Translations under genes and position numbers: made by a program
Part shown: piece by piece, positions 11,671 through 64,000 of the stretch
Position numbering within the stretch: position 1 is the stretch's first letter
How the letters are laid out: every line of letters starts with the position of its first letter
The notes under the pieces: model-generated
What the model was told of the DNA's origin: nothing
Database searches by the model: none
What the model saw: only the letters and a program-made list of their open reading frames with translations
DNA from: Hoyosella rhizosphaerae
GTDB lineage: Bacteria > Actinomycetota > Actinomycetes > Mycobacteriales > Mycobacteriaceae
Assembly: GCF_014643175.1 (NCBI RefSeq)
Contig: NZ_BMJH01000001.1
Span: 186,001-250,000 of the forward strand
DNA length: 64,000 bases
Direction: 5' to 3'

Positions 11671-14600
11671 ATGACTAGCACTGCAGTCGGTTCGGTCACC
11701 GACACAGCAAACAATGATGTCGAAAGTGCCGAGGTAACCGATTCCACTTTGCGGCCACTCACTGGTGCGCAACGCGGAATTTGGCATGCGCAACAACTTG
11801 ATCCGGAGTCTGACCGGTATCTCGTCGGCGAAGTCCTGGAAATCACTGGATCAGAGCCGATTGATGTCACAGTGCTCACCAAGGCAATTAAACGCACCGT
11901 CGCTGAAGCCGAAACGATGAGACTTCGATTCGTCGACACCTCGGACGGACCACGCCAGTTTGTTTCTCACATCGGGGTTAGCGCTGAGATCGTCGATCTG
12001 CGGGCGCATTCCAATCCAACCGAAATAGCGCACGCAGAGGTGGAGAACCATCGGCGCAGCGCTGCCGAACACTGCCGTCACATGGTCGACCGGCAGCTGT
12101 ATACGTATCTCTTGATCCGTCTTTCCGACTGCGAAGTCTGGTGCGTCCAGCTCTACCATCACCTGATTGTTGACGGATACAGTGCGGCTTTGCTGTCTCG
12201 CCGAGTGGCCGCCCACTACACCGGTTTGGTTCGAAACACCCCAGTGCCGACTGCTCCGTTTGGCACCATCGCTGAACTCGTAGCGGACGACGAAACCTAC
12301 CGCGCAAGTGAACAATTCGAGCGTGATCGCGAGTACTGGCGTGGTGTACTCACACCGCTGCCGCCGATGGAACGACGTACCGTCCCGCTGGGCGGCCAGG
12401 TCGAAGCCACAGTGCAAGCGCGCACGATCCTTCCAGGCGAGTTCCTTGACGACCTCCGTCAGCAAGCACAACACCTTGGTGTGACGTGGGCCGACATGCT
12501 CATCGCCGGGTACGCCGCGTTCCTTCATCGGCTGTTGGGGGTCTCCGACGTCGTTATCGCCCTACCTCTCATGGCGAGGTCGGGTCGGCTCGCGCTCACC
12601 ACTCCGGCGATGGTGGTGAATGTGCTGCCCTTGCGGGTCACCGTGCGTAGCGACGACGAACTAGGTCATCTCGCGCAACGAGTGGCGGGGGCGCTGCGTG
12701 ACATGAGAGCGCACCAGCGTTATCGGGGTGAAGATCTCATCCGCGAGTTCCCAGGGTGCGGCGCCTTGCTCCACGGAGTGGGCGTCAACCTCAAGGCATT
12801 CGATATGGCCCTGGACTTTGCAGGCGCCCGGGGTGTTCTCCGCAACGTAGCTGGTGGGCCTCCAGAGGACTTTGGACTGACGGTCACTCCTGGCGCTGAT
12901 CGCACAGTTCAGTTGGGCTTTGAAGCCGACGCCCGCACGAACGATGCGGTTGCAGTGCAGTGGCGGATGGACGCCCTCACCCAGATCGTCCGGACGCTCA
13001 CAGCGAACGCAACCAAAGTGGGTGCGCTACCGCTGATGTCGGCCGAGGAAACCGATCGGGTGCTGCACGCGCGAGCGAGCGCACCAGTAGCACGGCCAGC
13101 CGAGTTGCTTCCCGACGTGTTCGACCAACTGGTTGCGCAGCAGCCACAACGCACCCTCCTGTCGAGTGGCGACGAACAGTTCACCGCAGCAGAGCTCGGC
13201 GCGCGGGTATATCAGTTGGCCCGCTACCTGAGAAGTCAAGGCGTCGGACGCGAAACGATTGTTGGTATTGCCCTGCCTCGGAACGCTGACCTCGTCATCG
13301 CCGTGCTGGCTATCCTGCGTGCGGGCGGAGCGTATTTGCCCCTCGACCTTGAACAACCGACTGCGCGGTTACGAGACATCACCGTCGATGCGCAGCCCTC
13401 AGTCATTATCGCCAACAACGAACTCGCCGAGCTGGCAGGCACCGCGGTGCTGGTGGACATTGACGCACCAGACACGCGTAGTGCTGTGTCCGCAATGCCC
13501 AGCAATGTGCCGACAGGCGACGAATGGGGCGCGGCAAGTGATCAGCTCGCCTACGTCATCTACACATCGGGATCGACGGGTAAACCGAAAGGCGTACTGG
13601 GGCATCATGGGGGCCTCGCCGCATTGCTGGCTGGGCATCGCGGGGGACTGTACGCCGAGACGGTGCAACGCTGTGGCGGACGACCACTGCGGACCGCACA
13701 TACTGCATCCTTTGCCTTTGACGCGTCGATTGATCAATTGCTCTGGCTGTTCGATGGTCACCACGTCCACGTGTATGGCCCTGAGTTGCAGCGCGATGCC
13801 GCCGCACTCATTGCCGCGTTCCGTGATGACAGCATCGATGTCATCGACACCACCCCGTCGATGGCTGGTGCACTTATGGAGTGCGGACTAGCTGACAGGC
13901 CGCCAGCGCTACTCATCCTTGGCGGTGAAGCCTCCCCACCAGGACTGTGGCAGCGCCTCATCGACGCCAACATTCCGGTAGCTGACCTTTACGGACCCAC
14001 AGAGGCCACGGTCGACGCAATCGGCTCACTGCGGCCAGGCGCAGAGCCACGCATTGGTTGTCCGCTGCCCGGCACGGGTGCGTACCTGCTTGATGCTGAC
14101 CTATCCGTAGTTCCGGATGGCCAGACAGGGGAGTTGTATCTTGCGGGACCCAACATTGCACGCGGTTACCTTGGGCGCGCGGCGCTGACCGCAGACAGGT
14201 TTGTGGCAGATCCGTTCGGGAAGCCCGGTTCACGGATGTACCGCACCGGCGATCTTGCCCGGTGGATCCCGGGCGAAGGATACGAGTATCTCGGTCGCGC
14301 TGATCAACAGGTCAAGGTCCGCGGATACCGCATCGAGCTTGGCGAGGTTGAAGCCGCGTTGACGCGCCTGCCCGGCGTTCGTGCTGCTGCCGCGACTGTC
14401 CGCAACGAACCGCGCATCCTTGTCGGCTATGTTGTCCCAGACCCAGGCGCAAACCTTCCCGATACGGTCCGGTTGCGGGCGATGCTCGCAGAAACAGTGC
14501 CAGATCACTTGGTGCCCTCGTCGCTGGTTGTCATCGATGAACTTCCGATGACCGACAACGGAAAGGCCGATCGTTCAGCGCTGCCTGCTCCTCTTGTTGG

Positions 14601-53720: not shown

Positions 53721-53769
53721 CACGACATGATCCCCGGTTCCCTCGCGGAACCGGGGCTCGTCGTGTTTT
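53721..53769 (+). terminator. Rho-independent terminator after desaturase 2
   Basis: CACGAC (53721-53726) with GTCGTG (53760-53765) and CCCCGGTTCC (53732-53741) with GGAACCGGGG (53747-53756) form a long stem, followed by TTTT. It ends the reductase-desaturase operon. Confidence 0.92.
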
Positions 53770-57004: not shown

Positions 57005-58195
57005 CTACGTGCCATCGGATTGAATACGGCGCAACCTTTCAACGAGCTCATTGATGTCAAAAGTTGGTGTGAGGTGACACCAAGACATGCGCAGGGCTCC
57101 GTGAATCTGAGTCTCCGGCAGTCCGGCTGCGAGCAACACATGACTGAGCGCGTAACTTTGTGATGTGCACGCAGATCCGTTTGAAATTGCGGCGATGTCC
57201 TTCAGTGCAATGAGCGCGGCTTCGGAATCGAGACCAGGAACTGAAAAGTTCACAGTGTGTGGGGCCGTCCGGTCTAGGTCAGCGTTCCATGTGACGTTGA
57301 TTCGGTTGAGCGCGGCGACGAGTTGATCACGGATCTCGACACAGCGCGCTTCGCGCGCCTCGTGATCCCTTGTCGCAATTCGGGCTGCAGTCCCCAGTCC
57401 TGCGATCAGGGATACCGGCAAGGTTCCTGGTCGTAGACCTCGTTCTTGGCCACCTCCGAACATTATCGGTCGCAACGGTACCTTTTTAAAGCCTCGACGA
57501 CGAGCAACGAGCGCGCCGATCCCTTTCGGCGCAAATATCTTGTGCCCGGAAATACTCATGAGGTCTATTCGCTTGTTCCGGAGTGGCCCGATCGTTTTCC
57601 CGAAGGCCTGCGCCGCGTCGACATGCAAATAGGCATCGTGGTCGCTCAGGCTTTGTGAGATCTCCTCAATAGGTTGGGCGACCCCGGTTTCATTATTGAT
57701 ACCCATGACGGAGACCAAAAAAGTGTCTGGTCGGAGCGCCTTGGTAATTGAGGTAGGTTCGACCCACCCTCCGCGATTCGGCGGTACGACAGTGACATCA
57801 AATCCGAGCTCACGCAATTTTTCGATGGGCTCGAGTACAGCTTTGTGTTCAATCTCTGTAGTAAGGATGTGGCGCTTGCCAGCTTGCTCCGCGTGCGCTA
57901 CAAGTCCGAAGATCGCCAGATTGTTGCTTTCGGTTGCTCCGCTGGTAAAAGTAACCTCTTCGGGTTTTGCATCCACAACTTGAGCAACTTCGGCGCGCGC
58001 CCGCACGACGCGCTCCTTCGCGACCTGCCCATATGTGTGTGTGCGACTGCCAGCATTTCCGAACTCGACGTCAAGATACTTCACTACTTCGTCACGAACC
58101 TCGGGGTCTATCGGGGTTGTGGCGTTGCAGTCCAGATAGACAGGTCTTGTCGTCCTGCCAGTCAACAAGTTGTCAGAGGGAGGCGTTAAGGTCAT
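57005..58195 (-). CDS. dndA: Cysteine desulfurase of the Dnd DNA phosphorothioation system
   Basis: PLP enzyme that takes sulfur from L-cysteine and supplies it for phosphorothioate modification of DNA. From the ATG at 58195 it has 396 residues. Seen: Tyr-Leu-Asp-Cys-Asn-Ala-Thr-Thr-Pro near residue 20, Ala-Thr-Glu-Ser-Asn-Asn near 88, the PLP lysine in Ser-Gly-His-Lys near 218, and the catalytic Cys in Gly-Ser-Ala-Cys-Thr-Ser near 340. No ribosome site precedes the ATG, so the mRNA may be leaderless. It is divergent from dndB-dndE. The IscS-like sequence alone is general; the neighbours decide the call. Confidence 0.93.
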   Translation of the reverse strand: MTLTPPSDNLLTGRTTRPVYLDCNATTPIDPEVRDEVVKYLDVEFGNAGSRTHTYGQVAKERVVRARAEVAQVVDAKPEEVTFTSGATESNNLAIFGLVAHAEQAGKRHILTTEIEHKAVLEPIEKLRELGFDVTVVPPNRGGWVEPTSITKALRPDTFLVSVMGINNETGVAQPIEEISQSLSDHDAYLHVDAAQAFGKTIGPLRNKRIDLMSISGHKIFAPKGIGALVARRRGFKKVPLRPIMFGGGQERGLRPGTLPVSLIAGLGTAARIATRDHEAREARCVEIRDQLVAALNRINVTWNADLDRTAPHTVNFSVPGLDSEAALIALKDIAAISNGSACTSQSYALSHVLLAAGLPETQIHGALRMSWCHLTPTFDINELVERLRRIQSDGT

Positions 58196-58256
58196 ATCCG
58201 AACAGTACGGGATCCGACACGTGTTCGGTGGTGACAAATCGCCACACTGTTCGGAT
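58196..58256. promoter_or_regulatory. Inverted-repeat operator between dndA and dndB
   Basis: ATCCGAACAGT (58196-58206) and ACTGTTCGGAT (58246-58256) are a perfect 11-bp inverted repeat. Between them CCGACACGTGTTCGG (58214-58228) is a third, nearly palindromic site with the same GTTCGG core. The left arm touches the dndA start codon. DndB is known to regulate dnd transcription in Streptomyces and other hosts, so this is a good candidate for its binding site; that link is inferred. Confidence 0.7.
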
Positions 58257-58294
58257 GTATTGTTCCGTACATGGTTCTACATGAGGGGCGTGAG

Positions 58295-59410
58295 TTGACG
58301 ACAGCTAAGGTGCGAACGACCGGGTTTGAGTACGTGTTTCCTGCACTTCGCGGTGTGCAGGCAGGGCGCGAATATTTTGTAACTATGTGCCCGCTTCGGC
58401 TGATTCCGCGGTTGTTTGTGTTCGACGATGAAGAACTTGCCCCTGAGATGCGAGCACAAAGGTCATTGAACCGAAATCGTGTCCCTGAGATAGCCCGATA
58501 TATGGCTCAGAATCCGACAAATTACGTCTTTTCTGCACTTACAGCATCTGTTGATGCAGATGTGTCGTTCGAGTCCTTCACCGAGACCGGTTCGAACGAG
58601 CGAGTCGGCATCTTGACAATTCCCATGTCCGCGAAGTTTGTCATTAACGACGGGCAGCACCGCCGCGCAGCGATCCAACAGGCGTTGTCCGAAAGCCCCC
58701 ATCTAGGTGACGAGACAATTGCGATCGTGCTCTTCCTGGATGTAGGACTGAAGCGGTGCCAGCAAATGTTTGCCGACCTAAACCGGTACGCAATTCGTCC
58801 CGCCAAATCCATCAGTGTCTTGTATGACCATCGCGATGAGATGTCTGCCATTACACGGGTGACGGTGTTCAAGTCGCCCTTCTACAGCGATCTCACCGAG
58901 GCAGAATCCAATAATCTGGCGGCGCGCTCTCGCAAGCTCTTCACACTCTCAGGGTTCTACAACGCGAACAAGGCCCTACTCGATGGGGTTGCAGAGGACT
59001 CATTTGAACGGCGTGTCGACCTCGCAACAGCTTTTTGGGAGACAGTAGCCAGGCAGTTCCCTGAGTGGGGTCAAGTCCGGAACCGCGAAGTCAGTGCTGG
59101 TGAAGTGCGCCGTGACTTTATCCATAGTCACGGAATTGTGCTTCATGCGATCGGCAAGGTAGGGAACAGCCTGTTGCGGCAAACTCTCGAACGTAGAACC
59201 TGGGAGAAGACACTAAAGCGACTAGATTCAATCGACTGGCACAGGTCGAACTCGAATCTCTGGGAAGGCCGCGCAACTTCGGGTGGGAGAGTCTCGAAGA
59301 GTACAGGTAATGTACTCCTGACCACGGCAGTCATCCGGAAAGCCCTGGGAATGGAACTCTCCGCGGACGAACAGCGTGCAGAGAACGCCCTTACGCGAGG
59401 AGAAGCATGA
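58295..59410 (+). CDS. dndB: DndB, DGQHR-domain regulator of DNA phosphorothioation
   Basis: A protein of about 371 residues. The hallmark Asp-Gly-Gln-His-Arg-Arg is near residue 118, and the N-terminus has Phe-Glu-Tyr-Val-Phe-Pro-Ala-Leu-Arg-Gly-Val-Gln-Ala-Gly-Arg-Glu-Tyr-Phe, typical of DndB. I prefer a TTG start at 58295, which has GAGGGG six bases upstream; an ATG at 58271 lacks a ribosome site. DndB is not needed for sulfur insertion but affects how often sites are modified and acts on dnd transcription. It overlaps dndC by 4 bases. Confidence 0.95.
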   Translation: MTTAKVRTTGFEYVFPALRGVQAGREYFVTMCPLRLIPRLFVFDDEELAPEMRAQRSLNRNRVPEIARYMAQNPTNYVFSALTASVDADVSFESFTETGSNERVGILTIPMSAKFVINDGQHRRAAIQQALSESPHLGDETIAIVLFLDVGLKRCQQMFADLNRYAIRPAKSISVLYDHRDEMSAITRVTVFKSPFYSDLTEAESNNLAARSRKLFTLSGFYNANKALLDGVAEDSFERRVDLATAFWETVARQFPEWGQVRNREVSAGEVRRDFIHSHGIVLHAIGKVGNSLLRQTLERRTWEKTLKRLDSIDWHRSNSNLWEGRATSGGRVSKSTGNVLLTTAVIRKALGMELSADEQRAENALTRGEA

Positions 59411-60936
59411 CAATTAACATTCCGTTGCGCCCGAAGTCGTCCTTCGACGATCTGGGGTTCTCCGCAACTATAGGTGCAATAGTTAAACAGACGCAGGAAC
59501 TCTACCTATCAGACGGCATCCCGTGGGTAGTCGGCTATTCCGGAGGAAAAGACTCGACAGCCGTCTTGCAAGTAGTCTGGAAAGCCCTCGCTGGCCTCGC
59601 GCCCGAGCAGCGCACGAAGACGGTTCACGTGATCAGTACTGACACGCTCGTTGAGAATCCCGTAGTGGCTTTGTGGGTGACGCACTCATTGGACACAATG
59701 GCTGCAGCGGCACGAGAGCAGGACTTGCCGATCGTTCCGCACCGACTAACGCCAGCGGTCGCCGACACCTTCTGGGTCAACCTAATCGGGAAGGGGTACC
59801 CGGCGCCAAGACCTAAGTTCCGTTGGTGCACCGAGAGACTCAAGATAAAGCCGTCGAACACCTTTATTCGGGACATGGTGCGGGACCACGGCGAGGCGAT
59901 TCTGGTGCTCGGCACGCGGAAGGCAGAGAGTTCGGGCCGTTCCCATCGGATGACTGAGCTCGAATCTAGAAGGACCCGAGATCTCCTTAGTCCAAGCCAA
60001 TCGCTACCAAACTGTCTCATTTACTCTCCTGTCGAGAACTGGTCGAACGACGACGTGTGGACTTTCCTGATGCAGGTTCAGAACCTGTGGGGACACTCCA
60101 ACAAAGAATTGCTCACTATGTATCAAGGTGCATCGGAAGATGGCGAATGCCCTCTTGTAGTCGACTCATCAACGCCAAGTTGCGGTGATAGCCGCTTCGG
60201 CTGCTGGACATGCACTCTGGTTGAAAAAGACAAGTCGATGTCGGCCATGATCCAGAACGATGAGGAGAAGGAGTGGATGCTTCCGCTGCTTGAGCTCCGT
60301 AACGCGCTGGACGTACCTGACGACCGACATCTTCGGGATTTCAGGCGCATGAACGGATCTGTTCAGCTGTTTTACGATCGGCCTATCCCCGGTCCTTATA
60401 CACAGACCGCGCGCGAGGACTGGCTCAAGCGATTGCTCGAAGCGCAAGTCTGGATTCGTGAGAACGGCCCCGAGTACGTTCGTTCCCTCGAGCTAGTTAC
60501 TTTGGCGGAGCTGGAAGAAATTCGCCGAATCTGGGTTGTCGACAAGCACGAGTTCGAGGACACTCTTCCACAGATTTACGAGCAGACCGTGGGAGAAAAA
60601 TATCAAGGTAGCTCGTTAGATGAGCACTTGCCGTTAGGGCCGGACACAGTAGACATCCTTCGCTCGGTAATCGGGGAGGACCGGTTGCACTTCGAGCTGG
60701 TGCGAGAACTGCTTGACGTCGAGCAACGTCATCGTGCACGAGCTCGTCGCGCCGGGTTGTTCGACTCGTTGGAGAAGGCACTTAAGCGTGGCTTCTACGA
60801 GTCCAAGGATGACGCGTTGGAGCGCGCAAATGCACGACTATCTGCATTTGAGAAACGGGACGACGATGAATCACCGACCGATCTAGACATAGCGGATGGG
60901 TACGTCAGGAAAGTGAACGGGGGATCCGCGCAGTGA
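59407..60936 (+). CDS. dndC: DndC, ATP pyrophosphatase/PAPS reductase-like sulfurtransferase
   Basis: A 509-residue PP-loop ATPase. The motif Tyr-Ser-Gly-Gly-Lys-Asp-Ser-Thr is near residue 45. The iron-sulfur region Ser-Cys-Gly-Asp-Ser-Arg-Phe-Gly-Cys-Trp-Thr-Cys-Thr-Leu-Val-Glu-Lys-Asp-Lys-Ser follows near 260-285. The C-terminal 150 residues are charged and helical. DndC is thought to activate the DNA backbone or carry sulfur together with DndA, DndD and DndE. Overlaps both neighbours by 4 bases. Confidence 0.97.
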   Translation: MTINIPLRPKSSFDDLGFSATIGAIVKQTQELYLSDGIPWVVGYSGGKDSTAVLQVVWKALAGLAPEQRTKTVHVISTDTLVENPVVALWVTHSLDTMAAAAREQDLPIVPHRLTPAVADTFWVNLIGKGYPAPRPKFRWCTERLKIKPSNTFIRDMVRDHGEAILVLGTRKAESSGRSHRMTELESRRTRDLLSPSQSLPNCLIYSPVENWSNDDVWTFLMQVQNLWGHSNKELLTMYQGASEDGECPLVVDSSTPSCGDSRFGCWTCTLVEKDKSMSAMIQNDEEKEWMLPLLELRNALDVPDDRHLRDFRRMNGSVQLFYDRPIPGPYTQTAREDWLKRLLEAQVWIRENGPEYVRSLELVTLAELEEIRRIWVVDKHEFEDTLPQIYEQTVGEKYQGSSLDEHLPLGPDTVDILRSVIGEDRLHFELVRELLDVEQRHRARARRAGLFDSLEKALKRGFYESKDDALERANARLSAFEKRDDDESPTDLDIADGYVRKVNGGSAQ

Positions 60937-62900
60937 TTCTCGACGAACTTGTCCTCAGCAATATCGGGACCTTTTCGGGCACACAACGGCTAAATCTCAC
61001 GCCCGAGGCTGGTAAACCGATCGTACTGGTAGGCGGCTTGAACGGTTGCGGGAAGACCACAATCCTCGAAGCGATTCAGCTCGCGCTATACGGTCCGCTC
61101 GCTCCCCGAAATGGGCGCCGGAGTGGCGGATACGACACTTATTTGCGCAATCTTGTGCATCGTGGAGCGGAATCGAGGCACGCGAGGGTGGAGCTGGCTT
61201 TCCGTAGCTTCCAGGAAGGCAGTCAACGGAGCATCAGAATTATCCGTTCCTGGGATGGGGGCGCCGGTCCAGTTCACGACAACCTGGAAGTAGCTGTTGA
61301 CGGACGATTCGACAATGCACTTACCTCGACGTGGAACGAATATGTTGAGACATTTCTTCCTCGCGGTGTCGCAGGGTTGTTCTTCTTTGACGGCGAACAG
61401 ATTGAAGCTCTGGCCGACATGGACCGGAGCCGTGACGTACTAAGGGCGGCCCTCGCTGCGCTACTGGGACTGGACCTAGTTGACCGTCTTGGCGCGGACC
61501 TCGGTGTCCTGAGGCGCCGTCATCGTACAAATCAAATTCCGCCGGAACTGCAGTCATCCGTGGAGAGCAGTCGTCAACTAGTCACGCTCGCAAGGCAGGC
61601 AGAAGAAAGCGCAATGTCGGCCGTCGCGCATGCGAGAGTACAGCTTGAGCGTTCCGAAAAACAATTCTTTAGAATCAACGAGCAATACCGTTCAATCGGT
61701 GGTGAGTTGCTCGAGCAGCGTGACGATGTGGTGACCAAGCTGGAATCTGCGAAGCAGAGCAAGCGCGCTATTCAGGATCAACTTCGGGAAGCTATGGCAG
61801 GAGTCGCACCGTTGTTGCAGTTGGCGTCACTGCTTGAAGAACTACGCGATCAGGCAGCACTTGAATCTGCGGCAGCTCACCAACACGTTGTTGGCCAGGT
61901 GATCGCGGAGCGCGACAGAAACCTCGTTGAAAAACTCCGTGCTCAGGACGTCGAAAGTTTGGCCATCGACGTAGTTGAACGATTGCTTCGTGCGGACCGC
62001 GAGTCACGCAACAACAATGCGGATGTTTCACCTGTAGCGTTCCTAGCTGATGAATCTGCGCTCTCGAAATTAGTGGTTTCAGACATTCCGGCAGCACGTG
62101 AGCTCCTGAGTGGTCTTACTTATGAGCTGGAGTCCACTTCTTCGAAAGTCGATGATCTAGACCGATACCTTGCGACAATGCCCGATCCCGAATCAGTCGC
62201 GCAGATAGCAAGCGAACGAGAAAATGTTGAATCCGACCTCTACGCTCATCGAGCGGCCTTGGCTGCGGCCGAGGAACAGCATCGCTTATCAGGACTTGGG
62301 CGTGCGAAGGCCGAGACCGCGTACGAGTCTCAACTTGACCGCTTAGCGCAGGCCAACCTATCGATTGATGACGATCGCCGAACTATAAGCCACATCGACA
62401 AGGTCAAAGAGACCTTGAGAGCGCTGAAAGCGGCAGCCGTTGAGAGGCATATCGATCGAATCGGTGCGCTTGTTCTCGAAGCGTTGCAGCAATTACTCCG
62501 AAAGCAATCGCTTGTATCAGCGGTGAAGATCAGTTCTGATGACTACGGGGTTGAACTAGCTGGTGCAGATGGCTCAGTCATCTCCGCCAACCAACTGTCG
62601 GCCGGTGAGCGCCAATTGCTCGCAGTTGCGCTGCTGTGGGGGTTGGCCCGAGCTTCAGGGCAACCGCTACCGGTCGTCATTGACACTCCGCTGGGGCGCC
62701 TGGACGGCACACATCGCGAACGCCTACTTGATGGGTATTTTCCCCACGCAAGCCACCAAGTAATCCTGTTGTCCACAGACACAGAGATTGATAAAAACGC
62801 CTTTCAACGAATTTCGGGCGACGTCGCGCGCGTGTATCGCCTGAACTTTGACGACGAACTTAAAGCAACCTCGGTCGAGCCGGGATACTTCTGGGAGTGA
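60933..62900 (+). CDS. dndD: DndD, SMC-like ATPase of DNA phosphorothioation
   Basis: A 655-residue ABC/SMC-type ATPase starting at GTG 60933. Walker A Gly-Leu-Asn-Gly-Cys-Gly-Lys-Thr is near residue 31; Phe-Phe-Phe-Asp-Gly-Glu-Gln near 152; residues 220-520 are long coiled-coil; the C-terminal signature Leu-Ser-Ala-Gly-Glu-Arg-Gln and Walker B Val-Val-Ile-Asp-Thr-Pro-Leu-Gly-Arg-Leu-Asp complete the ATPase near 550-590. DndD probably nicks or remodels DNA so that sulfur can be inserted. Confidence 0.97.
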   Translation: MILDELVLSNIGTFSGTQRLNLTPEAGKPIVLVGGLNGCGKTTILEAIQLALYGPLAPRNGRRSGGYDTYLRNLVHRGAESRHARVELAFRSFQEGSQRSIRIIRSWDGGAGPVHDNLEVAVDGRFDNALTSTWNEYVETFLPRGVAGLFFFDGEQIEALADMDRSRDVLRAALAALLGLDLVDRLGADLGVLRRRHRTNQIPPELQSSVESSRQLVTLARQAEESAMSAVAHARVQLERSEKQFFRINEQYRSIGGELLEQRDDVVTKLESAKQSKRAIQDQLREAMAGVAPLLQLASLLEELRDQAALESAAAHQHVVGQVIAERDRNLVEKLRAQDVESLAIDVVERLLRADRESRNNNADVSPVAFLADESALSKLVVSDIPAARELLSGLTYELESTSSKVDDLDRYLATMPDPESVAQIASERENVESDLYAHRAALAAAEEQHRLSGLGRAKAETAYESQLDRLAQANLSIDDDRRTISHIDKVKETLRALKAAAVERHIDRIGALVLEALQQLLRKQSLVSAVKISSDDYGVELAGADGSVISANQLSAGERQLLAVALLWGLARASGQPLPVVIDTPLGRLDGTHRERLLDGYFPHASHQVILLSTDTEIDKNAFQRISGDVARVYRLNFDDELKATSVEPGYFWE

Positions 62901-62903
62901 AAC

Positions 62904-63290
62904 ATGGCGATCGAACACATCCGATTGAGTCAGTCCGCACGAGACCAACTGATCACGCTCAAGAGGCGAACTGGAATTGCCCACTGGAATGTCCTTTGTC
63001 GGTGGGCATTCTGTAGATCGCTCGCTGAGCCATCGGTTCCGCCGATGACCAAACTTGTGACTGATAGTAGTGTCGAGATGAACTGGAAAGTTTTCGCCGG
63101 CAATCAGGGTGATATCTATTGGGCATTGCTGCGAATGCGCTGCCACAAGGATGGGTTTCCCTTGGATGAGGACACGCTAGCCTCGCAGTTTCGGCTTCAT
63201 TTACACCGGGGGATTGGTTACCTAGTAGGGGACAGTCGCGTGACCGACGTTTCAGGATTAGCTTCAGTCGGGCTCGCCGCTGCGGAATGA
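62904..63290 (+). CDS. dndE: DndE, sulfur-modification protein
   Basis: A 128-residue basic protein. The pattern Ile-Arg-Leu-Ser, Leu-Lys-Arg-Arg-Thr-Gly-Ile-Ala-His-Trp-Asn-Val-Leu-Cys-Arg-Trp-Ala-Phe-Cys with Ser-Leu-Ala-Glu following is diagnostic of DndE, which binds nicked DNA as an oligomer. Three bases separate it from dndD. Its stop overlaps the start of the methyltransferase gene (ATGA). Confidence 0.96.
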   Translation: MAIEHIRLSQSARDQLITLKRRTGIAHWNVLCRWAFCRSLAEPSVPPMTKLVTDSSVEMNWKVFAGNQGDIYWALLRMRCHKDGFPLDEDTLASQFRLHLHRGIGYLVGDSRVTDVSGLASVGLAAAE

Positions 63291-64000
63291 CGATGACCAG
63301 CATTGCTCGCCACAAGACGGCTATGGTGCGCGACGCGTTGTCACGTCCAATGTCGATGGCCGTCTCAGACAGTCTCATCGCTCCCGGGCGAACCGTCTTT
63401 GACTACGGTTGCGGGCGGGGTGACGATCTTCGGCACCTTGAAGCGCTCGGATACCAAGCCAGTGGTTGGGATCCCGGACACCGTCCTGATGCAGAACACT
63501 GCCATGCAGATGTCGTCAATCTTGGTTACGTCGTCAACGTGATAGAAGATCGCGCCGAACGTGCTAGGACACTTGCAGCAGCTTGGGAACTAGCGAAGCG
63601 TGTACTGGTGGTGTCAGCGAGACTAGTCTGGGATGCCCGCGATCTCGTCGGTAGACGGCACAGTGATGGCGTTATAACTAGAACAGGAACATTTCAGAAG
63701 TTCTATGAACAACCTGAGCTAGCTGCCTGGATCACGCAAGTGCTCGGGGTGACACCTGTAGCTGCGGCGCCGGGCATCTTCTATGTCTTCCGCTGTGAAG
63801 AGGATCAACAACAGTTCCTCCATGATCGTGTGCACACGTATCGACCAAGAGTGCGAATCGATCCACACGAACGCTATGAGTCGACCAAAGAACTTCTTTC
63901 GCCGCTGTTTGATTTCATGTCTGCTCACGCACGCCCGCCCCGCACCCTTGAGCTCGATACCGGCGCGCAGGAAGCGATCAAAGTTGAGTTCGGCAGCGTT
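63287..64000 (+). CDS. DNA phosphorothioation-associated putative methyltransferase (partial, runs off end)
   Basis: The frame opens with ATG at 63287, overlapping the dndE stop by 4 bases, and stays open for 238 codons to the window end. The SAM-binding motif Val-Phe-Asp-Tyr-Gly-Cys-Gly-Arg-Gly-Asp-Asp is near residue 39, then Gly-Trp-Asp-Pro and Leu-Gly-Tyr-Val-Val-Asn-Val-Ile-Glu-Asp. This fits the methyltransferase-like family known as a neighbour of dnd genes. Its target is unknown. The C-terminal part lies outside the window. Confidence 0.9.
   Translation, partial: MTMTSIARHKTAMVRDALSRPMSMAVSDSLIAPGRTVFDYGCGRGDDLRHLEALGYQASGWDPGHRPDAEHCHADVVNLGYVVNVIEDRAERARTLAAAWELAKRVLVVSARLVWDARDLVGRRHSDGVITRTGTFQKFYEQPELAAWITQVLGVTPVAAAPGIFYVFRCEEDQQQFLHDRVHTYRPRVRIDPHERYESTKELLSPLFDFMSAHARPPRTLELDTGAQEAIKVEFGSV

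What the first reader, a model, noticed from the sequence alone, without database searches (positions are those of the whole stretch)
57005..64000. Complete core Dnd phosphorothioation locus with an associated methyltransferase
dndA is divergent from a tight dndB-C-D-E operon with 4-base overlaps, and the next gene, coupled by ATGA, is the phosphorothioation-associated putative methyltransferase cut by the window end. This host should carry sulfur in its DNA backbone; whether a restriction partner (dndFGH) is present decides if it is defence or epigenetic marking.
Basis: partly seen in the sequence, partly recalled or inferred. Interest (0 to 1): 0.55.

Follow-up and report, generated by a model that had tools for sequence, protein, structure and literature searches.

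The report
Sulfur-DNA defence island with extra nuclease pair
The window ends inside a complete set of genes for putting sulfur into the DNA backbone, and just past the window edge lie its likely virus-blocking partner genes and a so far unnamed two-gene nuclease module that accompanies such sulfur systems in other bacteria too.

Summary
In detail: dndA diverges from dndB-C-D-E, followed by the TIGR04096 'methyltransferase' gene. All five Dnd proteins pass their NCBIfam equivalog cut-offs. No DndG or DndH match was found in the genome (DndF not searched). Instead, 6-11 kb past the window edge and convergent with dnd, sits a complete pbeABCD cassette, headed by an extra 749-aa RpoA-CTD/sigma-4 gene that overlaps pbeA by 4 nt. 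So this is most likely a Dnd-Pbe phage-defence island, a known kind.

The new part lies between the modules: a translationally coupled pair. One gene encodes a GIY-YIG nuclease that Pfam misses (fold Z 8.9 to UvrC; seven motif residues invariant in 50 of 50 rows). The other encodes a 753-aa DndB-like DGQHR protein whose predicted N-domain best matches the phosphorothioate sensor SspE (weakly, Z 5.3). In 65 of 78 loci of a genome scan this family sits beside Dnd or Ssp genes (49 of 52 with full flanks), and the tree splits by adjacent system type with one change. I propose a two-gene, phosphorothioate-linked NTPase-nuclease effector, a split analogue of SspE/DndI. The mechanism is inferred, not shown.

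The parts
57005..58237 (-). dndA, cysteine desulfurase
   Evidence: TIGR03235 486.5 bits, cut-off 480; SGHK and SACTS motifs. Start may be an internal ATG.
58248..58271 (+). palindrome TGTwCGGA-N8-TCCGwACA in front of dndB, candidate operator (inferred)
   Evidence: only match in the window at up to 1 mismatch, 0 expected; present with 0-1 mismatch in 6 of 6 family dnd loci, one with a 7-nt spacer
58271..59410 (+). dndB
   Evidence: TIGR03233 500.5 bits, cut-off 328; start codon uncertain
59407..60936 (+). dndC, sulfurtransferase
   Evidence: TIGR03183 666.1 bits, cut-off 290.4
60933..62900 (+). dndD, ABC/SMC-like ATPase
   Evidence: TIGR03185 563.2 bits, cut-off 245.85
62904..63290 (+). dndE
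   Evidence: TIGR03184 125.1 bits, cut-off 71.85
63287..64000 (+). DNA phosphorothioation-associated putative methyltransferase, cut by the window end; continues for 738 bases beyond it (L001:9287-10738). The pair (L001:11325-12044 and 12048-14309, +), HNH gene (L001:14935-15639, -), pbeD-C-B-A (L001:16000 to L002:853, -) and the 749-aa gene (L002:850-3099, -) lie outside the window and are placed in the full report
   Evidence: TIGR04096 623.4 bits over full length, cut-off 150

Best explanation
This is a PT defence island, probably acquired horizontally. DndA and DndC supply and insert sulfur, and DndD-DndE choose the DNA sites, marking the host genome. DndB probably limits this by acting on the palindrome before dndB. 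PbeABCD, headed by a DNA-binding RpoA-CTD/sigma-4-like protein, is the partner that blocks unmarked incoming DNA. Between them sits a PT-linked two-gene effector: the 753-aa DndB/SspE-like NTPase reads the PT state of DNA or the NTP state of the cell and gates the separately encoded GIY-YIG nuclease, as SspE and DndI do within one chain with an HNH nuclease. Shown here: gene content, order, families, the predicted GIY-YIG fold with conserved motif residues, and the recurrence of the pair beside Dnd and Ssp systems. Inferred: PT marking, Pbe activity, operator role, complex formation, and NTP gating.
For: Dnd equivalogs over cut-off. pbeABCD complete and in the order of the published cassette (PMC6459918 passages; PMC10853773 section 16). 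No DndG or DndH match in the genome. The pair: 65 of 78 loci have a Dnd or Ssp gene within the fetched flanks; 63 of 78 have dndC (30) or sspD (33); among loci with at least 8 kb on both sides, 49 of 52 have a Dnd or Ssp gene and 47 of 52 have dndC or sspD. Of the 13 loci without, 10 have DndC or SspD elsewhere in the genome. GIY stop and DGQHR start overlap or lie within 7 nt in 49 of 50. The tree of 77 rows needs 1 change between the Dnd-adjacent (31) and Ssp-adjacent (33) rows (shuffled mean about 21.6, 0 of 500 as low). GIY-YIG fold: UvrC 8.9, R.Eco29kI 7.8, T4 EndoII 7.5, next unrelated 3.2. DGQHR N-domain: SspE is the top VIA row, Z 5.3. Independent draw: in 396 genomes of the phylum the only other strong A6 hit (G362, 594 bits) lies beside sspB-C-D.
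Against: No biochemical data. SspE Z 5.3 is under the tool's own caution level of 8, and Foldseek E was 0.57. hhalign against an SspE-like protein found nothing useful (probability 3.1%). The PT-sensing tyrosine before Q in SspE (P61, Y63, Q64 in EcSspE) is L, M or I in 52 of 52 DGQHR rows if my by-eye register is right. The pair is optional: among 6 family dnd loci it is in 2, within the stretches read, and G146 lacks it genome-wide. 26 of 75 loci with upstream room lack a detectable GIY gene. Seven rows without PT genes in their fetched flanks do not support the split by type: L087, L088, L090, L092 and L098 lie on the Ssp side although their genomes gave DndC and no clear SspD; L077 and L079 lie on the Dnd side although their genomes gave SspD, plus a weaker 533- and 539-aa frame that I did not examine. 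In G227 no pbe gene lies in the about 25 kb beyond MT; the contig has only 738 bases on the dndA side, and the rest of that genome was not searched. The strict HxKx4D pattern did not match PbeA.
Confidence: 0.55

Rival explanations
1. The island is an ordinary Dnd plus Pbe defence system; the GIY-YIG/DGQHR pair is a regulator of PT level (a second DndB with a nuclease partner) rather than an effector.
For: The DGQHR N-domain aligns with DndB (E 2.6e-5), and DndB is reported as a regulator of PT modification (title and abstract start of PMC4507180 in the listing; passage in PMC10853773).
Against: A nuclease with seven motif residues kept in 50 of 50 rows is not needed for repression. The pair also accompanies Ssp, and own dndB is present as well, so it does not replace DndB.
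Confidence: 0.25
2. The pair is an independent defence or anti-plasmid system merely sharing defence islands with PT systems.
For: 3 of 78 genomes gave neither DndC nor SspD (all MAGs); 10 of 78 have the PT gene only elsewhere in the genome, seven of them with a type that does not clearly fit the tree side; the pair is optional; GC is lower than in the neighbouring modules (0.47-0.52 against about 0.55).
Against: Adjacency in 49 of 52 full-flank loci across phyla, and a tree whose adjacent rows split by PT type rather than by taxonomy, go beyond what I would expect of a general defence-island neighbour (no matched control gene was run); in 20 of 22 sspD-upstream cases the GIY gene starts within 60 nt of the sspD stop.
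Confidence: 0.12
3. Solitary marking: the Dnd genes act mainly as an epigenetic or antioxidant mark and the neighbouring nucleases are decayed or inactive.
For: No dndG or dndH match found; Xiong et al. saw no DNA cleavage with PbeABCD (PMC6459918, passages); the strict HKD pattern did not match PbeA.
Against: All four pbe genes are intact open frames; PbeC Walker A and CxC, and PbeA GTGKT and DEAH, are present; the two modules stand side by side in 4 of 5 relatives, though in differing arrangements.
Confidence: 0.08

Closest known systems
DndCDEA-PbeABCD (Xiong et al. 2019, PMC6459918) = CxC ABC-ATPase system (Rakesh et al. 2024, PMC10853773)
   Same: pbeA-B-C-D order, PLD-helicase PbeA, small PbeB, CxC PbeC, DndE-like PbeD, beside a Dnd modification set
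   Different: five-gene Dnd with dndA and dndB, a TIGR04096 gene in the operon, Pbe convergent rather than downstream, and an extra 749-aa gene overlapping pbeA
SspE and DndI (PMC13251355, PMC11662687; passages seen)
   Same: ParB/DUF262-type domain with a DGQxR motif tied to a nuclease and to PT
   Different: nuclease in a separate gene, of GIY-YIG instead of HNH type; no tyrosine at the putative sensor position (by-eye register); large helical C-domain
SspFGH (PMC8092258, section 6 read)
   Same: genes beside sspBCD that act with PT
   Different: three genes, with a Walker A motif in SspF and an FtsK-like C-terminus in SspH, as that section states; the pair has two genes and neither feature was found in the scans
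DndB (PF14072, TIGR03233)
   Same: aligned over about 155 columns including DGQHR
   Different: twice as long, below both the Pfam and the DGQHR-domain cut-offs, and paired with a nuclease
GIY-YIG nucleases R.Eco29kI, UvrC N-domain, T4 EndoII, I-TevI
   Same: fold (first three; I-TevI only as a weak profile hit) and G-Y, Y-G, R, H, E residues (their roles recalled)
   Different: 87-124 residues between the GIY and YIG tyrosines in 50 rows; not detected by Pfam at E 10
URI/GIY-YIG genes mentioned near Dnd loci (PMC10853773, section 17)
   Same: GIY-YIG genes near Dnd were noted and proposed as suicide effectors
   Different: the sections and passages seen do not mention the DGQHR partner, translational coupling, or a link to Ssp; its supplements could not be opened

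Membership tests
DndABCDE modification system | all five proteins over equivalog cut-offs | tested here: met
DndABCDE modification system | motifs looked for in A, B, C and D are present | tested here: met
DndABCDE modification system | phosphorothioate in genomic DNA | not testable with these tools
   needs LC-MS/MS
DndFGH restriction | dndF, dndG, dndH present | tested here: inconclusive
   DndG PDLC02678 and DndH PDLC02683 gave no match in the genome, but one model each; the DndG search rang in no control genome; DndF was not searched
PbeABCD | PbeA and PbeC families | tested here: met
   PADLOC 522.0+282.4 and 842.5 bits
PbeABCD | small PbeB and DndE-like PbeD in order A-B-C-D | tested here: met
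   TIGR04062 67.8 bits is just under its cut-off 74.25
PbeABCD | CxC Zn-hook in PbeC | tested here: met
   CIC at residue 336
PbeABCD | HKD nuclease motif in PbeA | tested here: inconclusive
   PLDc_2 28.2 bits over cut-off 27; HEKLGIFRD and GSSN present but with one residue more than HxKx4D
PbeABCD | PT-dependent virus blocking | not testable with these tools
   needs phage assays
GIY-YIG nuclease superfamily | fold | tested here: met
   Z 8.9 UvrC, 7.8 R.Eco29kI; next unrelated 3.2
GIY-YIG nuclease superfamily | conserved Y, Y, R, E (recalled as catalytic) | tested here: met
   50 of 50 rows: own and 49 of the 50 GIY homologues, L081 left out of the alignment
GIY-YIG nuclease superfamily | C-terminal Asn of the motif set (recalled) | tested here: inconclusive
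   no invariant Asn in A5; P234 and G237 are invariant instead
DndB family | Pfam PF14072 and NCBIfam DGQHR cut-offs (for the 753-aa protein) | tested here: not met
   24.4 against 29.1 and 38.3 against 58.85
SspE/DndI | ParB-type domain and nuclease in one chain | tested here: not met
   two genes
SspE/DndI | DGQxR NTPase motif | tested here: met
   DGQHR in 52 of 52 rows
SspE/DndI | PT-sensing tyrosine before Q | tested here: inconclusive
   L 36, M 15, I 1 of 52 at the position before the invariant QR, which would be 'not met', but the register was set by eye
TIGR04096 | subfamily cut-off | tested here: met
   623.4 against 150
TIGR04096 | methyltransferase activity | not testable with these tools
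   SAM-type motif FDYGCG present; substrate unknown

The most novel reading that the evidence does not exclude
A conserved, so far unnamed two-gene effector (a large DndB/SspE-like NTPase plus an insert-bearing GIY-YIG nuclease) is a recurrent partner of both known kinds of DNA phosphorothioation, double-strand Dnd and single-strand Ssp. It has co-diverged with the kind of mark, so that its NTPase specifically reads PT state and licenses the nuclease.
Probability: 0.4. Interest if true: 0.75.

Novelty: new variant of a known kind. Interest (0 to 1): 0.58.

Why it matters
It also points to a module that occurs with both kinds of PT system, has no match in Pfam for its GIY part or in PADLOC 2.0 for either gene, and is labelled 'DndB' or 'hypothetical' in the plasmid records looked at. 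A nuclease gated by a separate PT-linked NTPase would make the PT-reading step directly testable with two purified proteins.

Tried and rejected
PF13020 (NOV_C) search of the own genome as a first probe: no match, uninformative. Island boundaries: homology with three dnd-free genus mates ends at window 53759, but their sequence beyond does not align (blastn) to the next 80 kb here, so the right boundary and an empty site were not found. The palindrome before dndB was looked for elsewhere as a shared operator for pbe or the pair: no second exact copy in the own 134 kb; looser matches there were at shuffle level (7 against 6.0), but in G068 above it (7 against 1.6), not followed. Phages: no hit to the DGQHR protein. 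hhalign to an SspE-like protein: nothing useful. Solved-structure profile search with the DGQHR alignment: no hit; with the GIY alignment only sub-significant hits, the best on-family (UvrC E 0.078, EndoII 0.47, I-TevI 1.0) among unrelated ones. Foldseek alone gave E 0.044 at best for GIY and nothing significant for DGQHR. dndFGH as partner: not supported as far as tested. The pair as SspFGH: rejected, since SspFGH is three genes with a Walker A and an FtsK-like part (PMC8092258 section 6). A GmrSD_N protein exists on contig C3 with no visible link to dnd. No matched control gene was run for the 65-of-78 adjacency; the background is only that DndC over cut-off is in 6 of 301 and 3 of 396 genomes. 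Not in print: claimed only for the searches. Of the papers cited here I saw: PMC10853773, sections 16, 17, 24 and passages; PMC8092258, section 6 and passages; PMC6459918, PMC11662687, PMC13251355, PMC10952713, PMC12602166 and PMC12707154, passages only; PMC4507180, listing only. The three reviews hold GIY-YIG only in other contexts.
Full report
WHAT IS IN THE WINDOW. The finding is correct. On the minus strand dndA (57005-58237) diverges from dndB, dndC, dndD, dndE and a sixth gene that the window cuts. Each Dnd protein passes its NCBIfam equivalog cut-off, DndA narrowly, and the motifs looked for in A, B, C and D are in place. The overlaps are 4 nt at B/C, C/D and E/MT; D/E is spaced by 3 nt. 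The cut gene, completed from the neighbouring stretch of the same contig (L001, window = L001 + 54000), is a 483-aa TIGR04096 protein, 623.4 bits. A palindrome TGTTCGGA-N8-TCCGTACA lies at 58248-58271, is unique in the window and unexpected by chance, and recurs with at most one mismatch before dndB in 6 of 6 family dnd loci, own included, one of them with a 7-nt spacer. I take it as a candidate DndB operator; this is inference.

DISTRIBUTION. DndC over cut-off is in 6 of 301 genomes of the family, including this one, and not in three genus mates; in 396 genomes of the phylum it is in 3. Base composition falls from about 0.59 to 0.54-0.57 over the dnd genes and to 0.47-0.52 just after them. 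Homology to the three genus mates stops at 53759. This fits a horizontally acquired island, whose right edge I could not fix.

BEYOND THE WINDOW. Coordinates here are extrapolated on G000:C1 (window = L001 + 54000 = L002 + 74000). On the minus strand, converging on the Dnd operon: a 749-aa protein with RpoA-CTD and sigma-region-4 matches (74850-77099), pbeA (PLD + SF2 helicase, 72715-74853, PADLOC 522.0 and 282.4 bits for the two pieces split by the locus edge), a 59-aa ORF in the place of pbeB (72521-72700), pbeC (70467-72524, PADLOC 842.5 bits, CxC motif) and pbeD (70000-70470, TIGR04062 just under cut-off). An HNH gene (68935-69639, -) lies between pbeD and the pair. PbeA's HKD-like stretch HEKLGIFRD...GSSN has one residue more than the strict pattern. 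The order A-B-C-D is that of the experimentally tested PbeABCD of Haloterrigena (PMC6459918, passages), and the CxC ATPase/DndE reading is that of Rakesh et al. 2024 (PMC10853773, section 16), who report tandem DndD and CxC systems in 936 bacterial taxa. Dnd plus Pbe is therefore a known combination. In 4 of the 5 other dnd-positive family genomes pbeABCD stands beside the dnd genes, convergent in three and ahead of dnd in one (G146). In the fifth (G227) no pbe gene lies in the about 25 kb after MT, and its contig ends 738 bases past dndA on the other side; the rest of that genome was not searched. In all five Pbe loci seen, own included, the 749-aa gene overlaps pbeA by 4 nt. Among 11 further pbeA genes over 40% identical in the genome-scan loci it is adjacent in 10 (9 by script with 4-nt or 1-nt overlap, L074 by its coordinates; L071 lacks it; L074 is probably the same record as G044). 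The descriptions of Pbe that I read do not mention this gene; PMC10853773 mentions a sigma-like domain only inside a DndH variant.

THE PAIR. Between the two operons lie two plus-strand genes separated by 3 nt: 239 aa (65325-66044) and 753 aa (66048-68309). Pfam finds nothing in the first even at E 10, and only a sub-cut-off DndB match in the second (24.4 against 29.1); PADLOC gave no match for either at E 0.001. AlphaFold on a 50-row alignment (own and 49 of 50 homologues) gave the first protein pLDDT 91.1. VIA-align ranks UvrC GIY-YIG domains (Z 8.9, rmsd 2.4, 87 aligned), R.Eco29kI (7.8), T4 EndoII (7.5) and a plant Grx N-terminal domain (7.5), then drops to 3.2; Foldseek alone was weaker (best E 0.044, top seven rows all R.Eco29kI). 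G24, Y26, Y141, G143, R151, H155 and E225 are invariant in 50 of 50 rows, with 87-124 residues between the two tyrosines. I read it as a GIY-YIG nuclease with an insert between its first two strands. The second protein has DGQHR in 52 of 52 rows (own and 51 of 76 long homologues), aligns to this locus's DndB (hhalign probability 74.7%, E 2.6e-5, 155 columns), and its predicted N-domain (model pLDDT 87.7) has SspE as best VIA row (Z 5.3, rmsd 4.4, 157 aligned, residues 24-263), with the GmrSD-type BrxU fifth (3.9). These Z values are weak by the tool's own note, and Foldseek was not significant. A direct hhalign to an SspE-like protein was blank.

RECURRENCE WITH PT SYSTEMS. A tblastn of plasmids found 7 records; the four opened all lie beside PT-type genes: Nonomuraea (dndA-E plus a TIGR04096-like gene) and Trichormus, Asticcacaulis and Geminocystis (Ssp-type genes). 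An alignment-based scan of genome contigs matched 248 stretches, 96 encoding relatives, the best 80 kept, 78 distinct loci. A Dnd or Ssp gene lies within the fetched flanks in 65 of 78; dndC in 30, sspD in 33, never both; with at least 8 kb on both sides, 49 of 52 (47 of 52 with dndC or sspD). Of the 13 others, 3 genomes have SspD and 5 have DndC elsewhere, and 2 more have DndC, leaving 3 of 78, all MAGs. The GIY gene is directly upstream in 49 of 75 loci with room for it, overlapping or within 7 nt of the DGQHR gene in 49 of 50 (starts are longest-ORF starts, so overlaps are upper bounds). Of ten loci without it that I looked at, the upstream gene was by eye a GHKL-type ATPase (L049, L050, probably L053), PbeD-like (L078, L079), SspE-like (L089), PIN-like (L087), sspD itself (L091) or unclear (L068, L092). 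In 20 of 22 cases with sspD upstream on the same strand, the GIY gene starts within 60 nt of the sspD stop. A tree of 77 DGQHR proteins (quick method, SH-aLRT, with long-branch warnings) separates Dnd-adjacent (31) from Ssp-adjacent (33) rows with one change (shuffled mean about 21.6, 0 of 500 as low). Among adjacent rows it follows PT type rather than taxonomy: cyanobacteria L071 and L078 and a proteobacterium L072, all with dnd, fall with the actinobacterial Dnd rows, and Mycolicibacterium L103, with ssp, falls with the Ssp rows. Against this, rows without PT genes in their flanks do not follow so cleanly: L087, L088, L090, L092 and L098 lie on the Ssp side although their genomes gave DndC and no clear SspD, and L077 and L079 lie on the Dnd side although their genomes gave SspD (plus weaker 533- and 539-aa frames not examined). 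In an independent draw of 396 phylum genomes the alignment found 3: own, G362 (594 bits; the pair stands beside a cysteine desulfurase, sspB, sspC, sspD and Pbe-like genes) and a weak one, G401 (22 bits, a DndB-like frame near sspC/D). The pair is optional: own and G044 among 6 family loci, in the stretches read.

HOW IT MOST LIKELY WORKS. Inferred: DndA/C/D/E mark host DNA with sulfur, DndB keeps the level in check, and Pbe blocks unmarked DNA. For the pair, the best model is a split version of SspE/DndI, in which a ParB-like DGQxR NTPase senses PT and an HNH nickase is in the same chain (PMC13251355 and PMC11662687, passages). Here the nuclease is GIY-YIG and encoded apart. A caution: the tyrosine that reads PT in EcSspE stands before Q64 (P61, Y63, Q64), and the residue before the invariant QR here is L, M or I in 52 of 52 (register by eye), so the reading step, if it exists, must differ. 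The alternative that the pair regulates PT is kept as the main rival.

LITERATURE. Searches for 'GIY-YIG' with phosphorothioate or Ssp terms, 'DGQHR' and 'SspBCD' with 'ParB' returned no paper that, in what I read, describes this pair; most listed papers were seen only as listings or passages. The nearest is a passage in PMC10853773 on URI (GIY-YIG) genes at the borders of Dnd loci. Three reviews that came up hold GIY-YIG only in other contexts, and SspFGH is a different, three-gene cassette. Supplementary files could not be opened, and most papers of subscription journals are missing from the library.

VERDICT. The window feature itself is a new member of a known kind. The conserved GIY-YIG/DGQHR module, found with both PT systems, is the part worth following, as a new variant of PT-linked effectors.

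Noticed in passing
77540-79987 (extrapolated; L002:3540-5987): 815-aa SMC/AAA ATPase divergent from the 749-aa gene; a 43% identical gene sits at the same place in G146. Weak PADLOC hits to MADS and LmuB parts.
   Followed up: partly
L030:8599-11286 (G195): In a relative the slot between Dnd and Pbe holds a different pair: a 568-aa protein with a DGQHR motif next to a 319-aa HNH-like protein (domains by eye), as if nuclease + DGQHR pairs were exchangeable cargo.
   Followed up: no
L027:9339-18567 (G068): In another relative the same slot is filled with genes that look like transposases (by eye).
   Followed up: no
L049:7804-9795, L050:7887-9797 and probably other Streptomyces loci: A GHKL-type ATPase gene (by eye) stands in place of the GIY-YIG gene upstream of the DGQHR gene.
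   Followed up: partly
L041:5315-5998: In a Trichormus plasmid the GIY-YIG gene is split by an in-frame stop into two annotated CDS, while the neighbouring DGQHR and ssp genes are annotated as whole.
   Followed up: no
L096, L100, L101, L109: TIGR04096-like genes also occur in 4 of 33 loci with sspD, not only in Dnd loci (22 of 30).
   Followed up: no
88501-89828 (extrapolated; L002:14501-15828): Two tandem, closely similar short lipoprotein-like genes (by eye).
   Followed up: no
G000:C3:530832-531479 (L140): A GmrSD_N (DUF262) protein, possible type IV restriction enzyme, on another contig.
   Followed up: no
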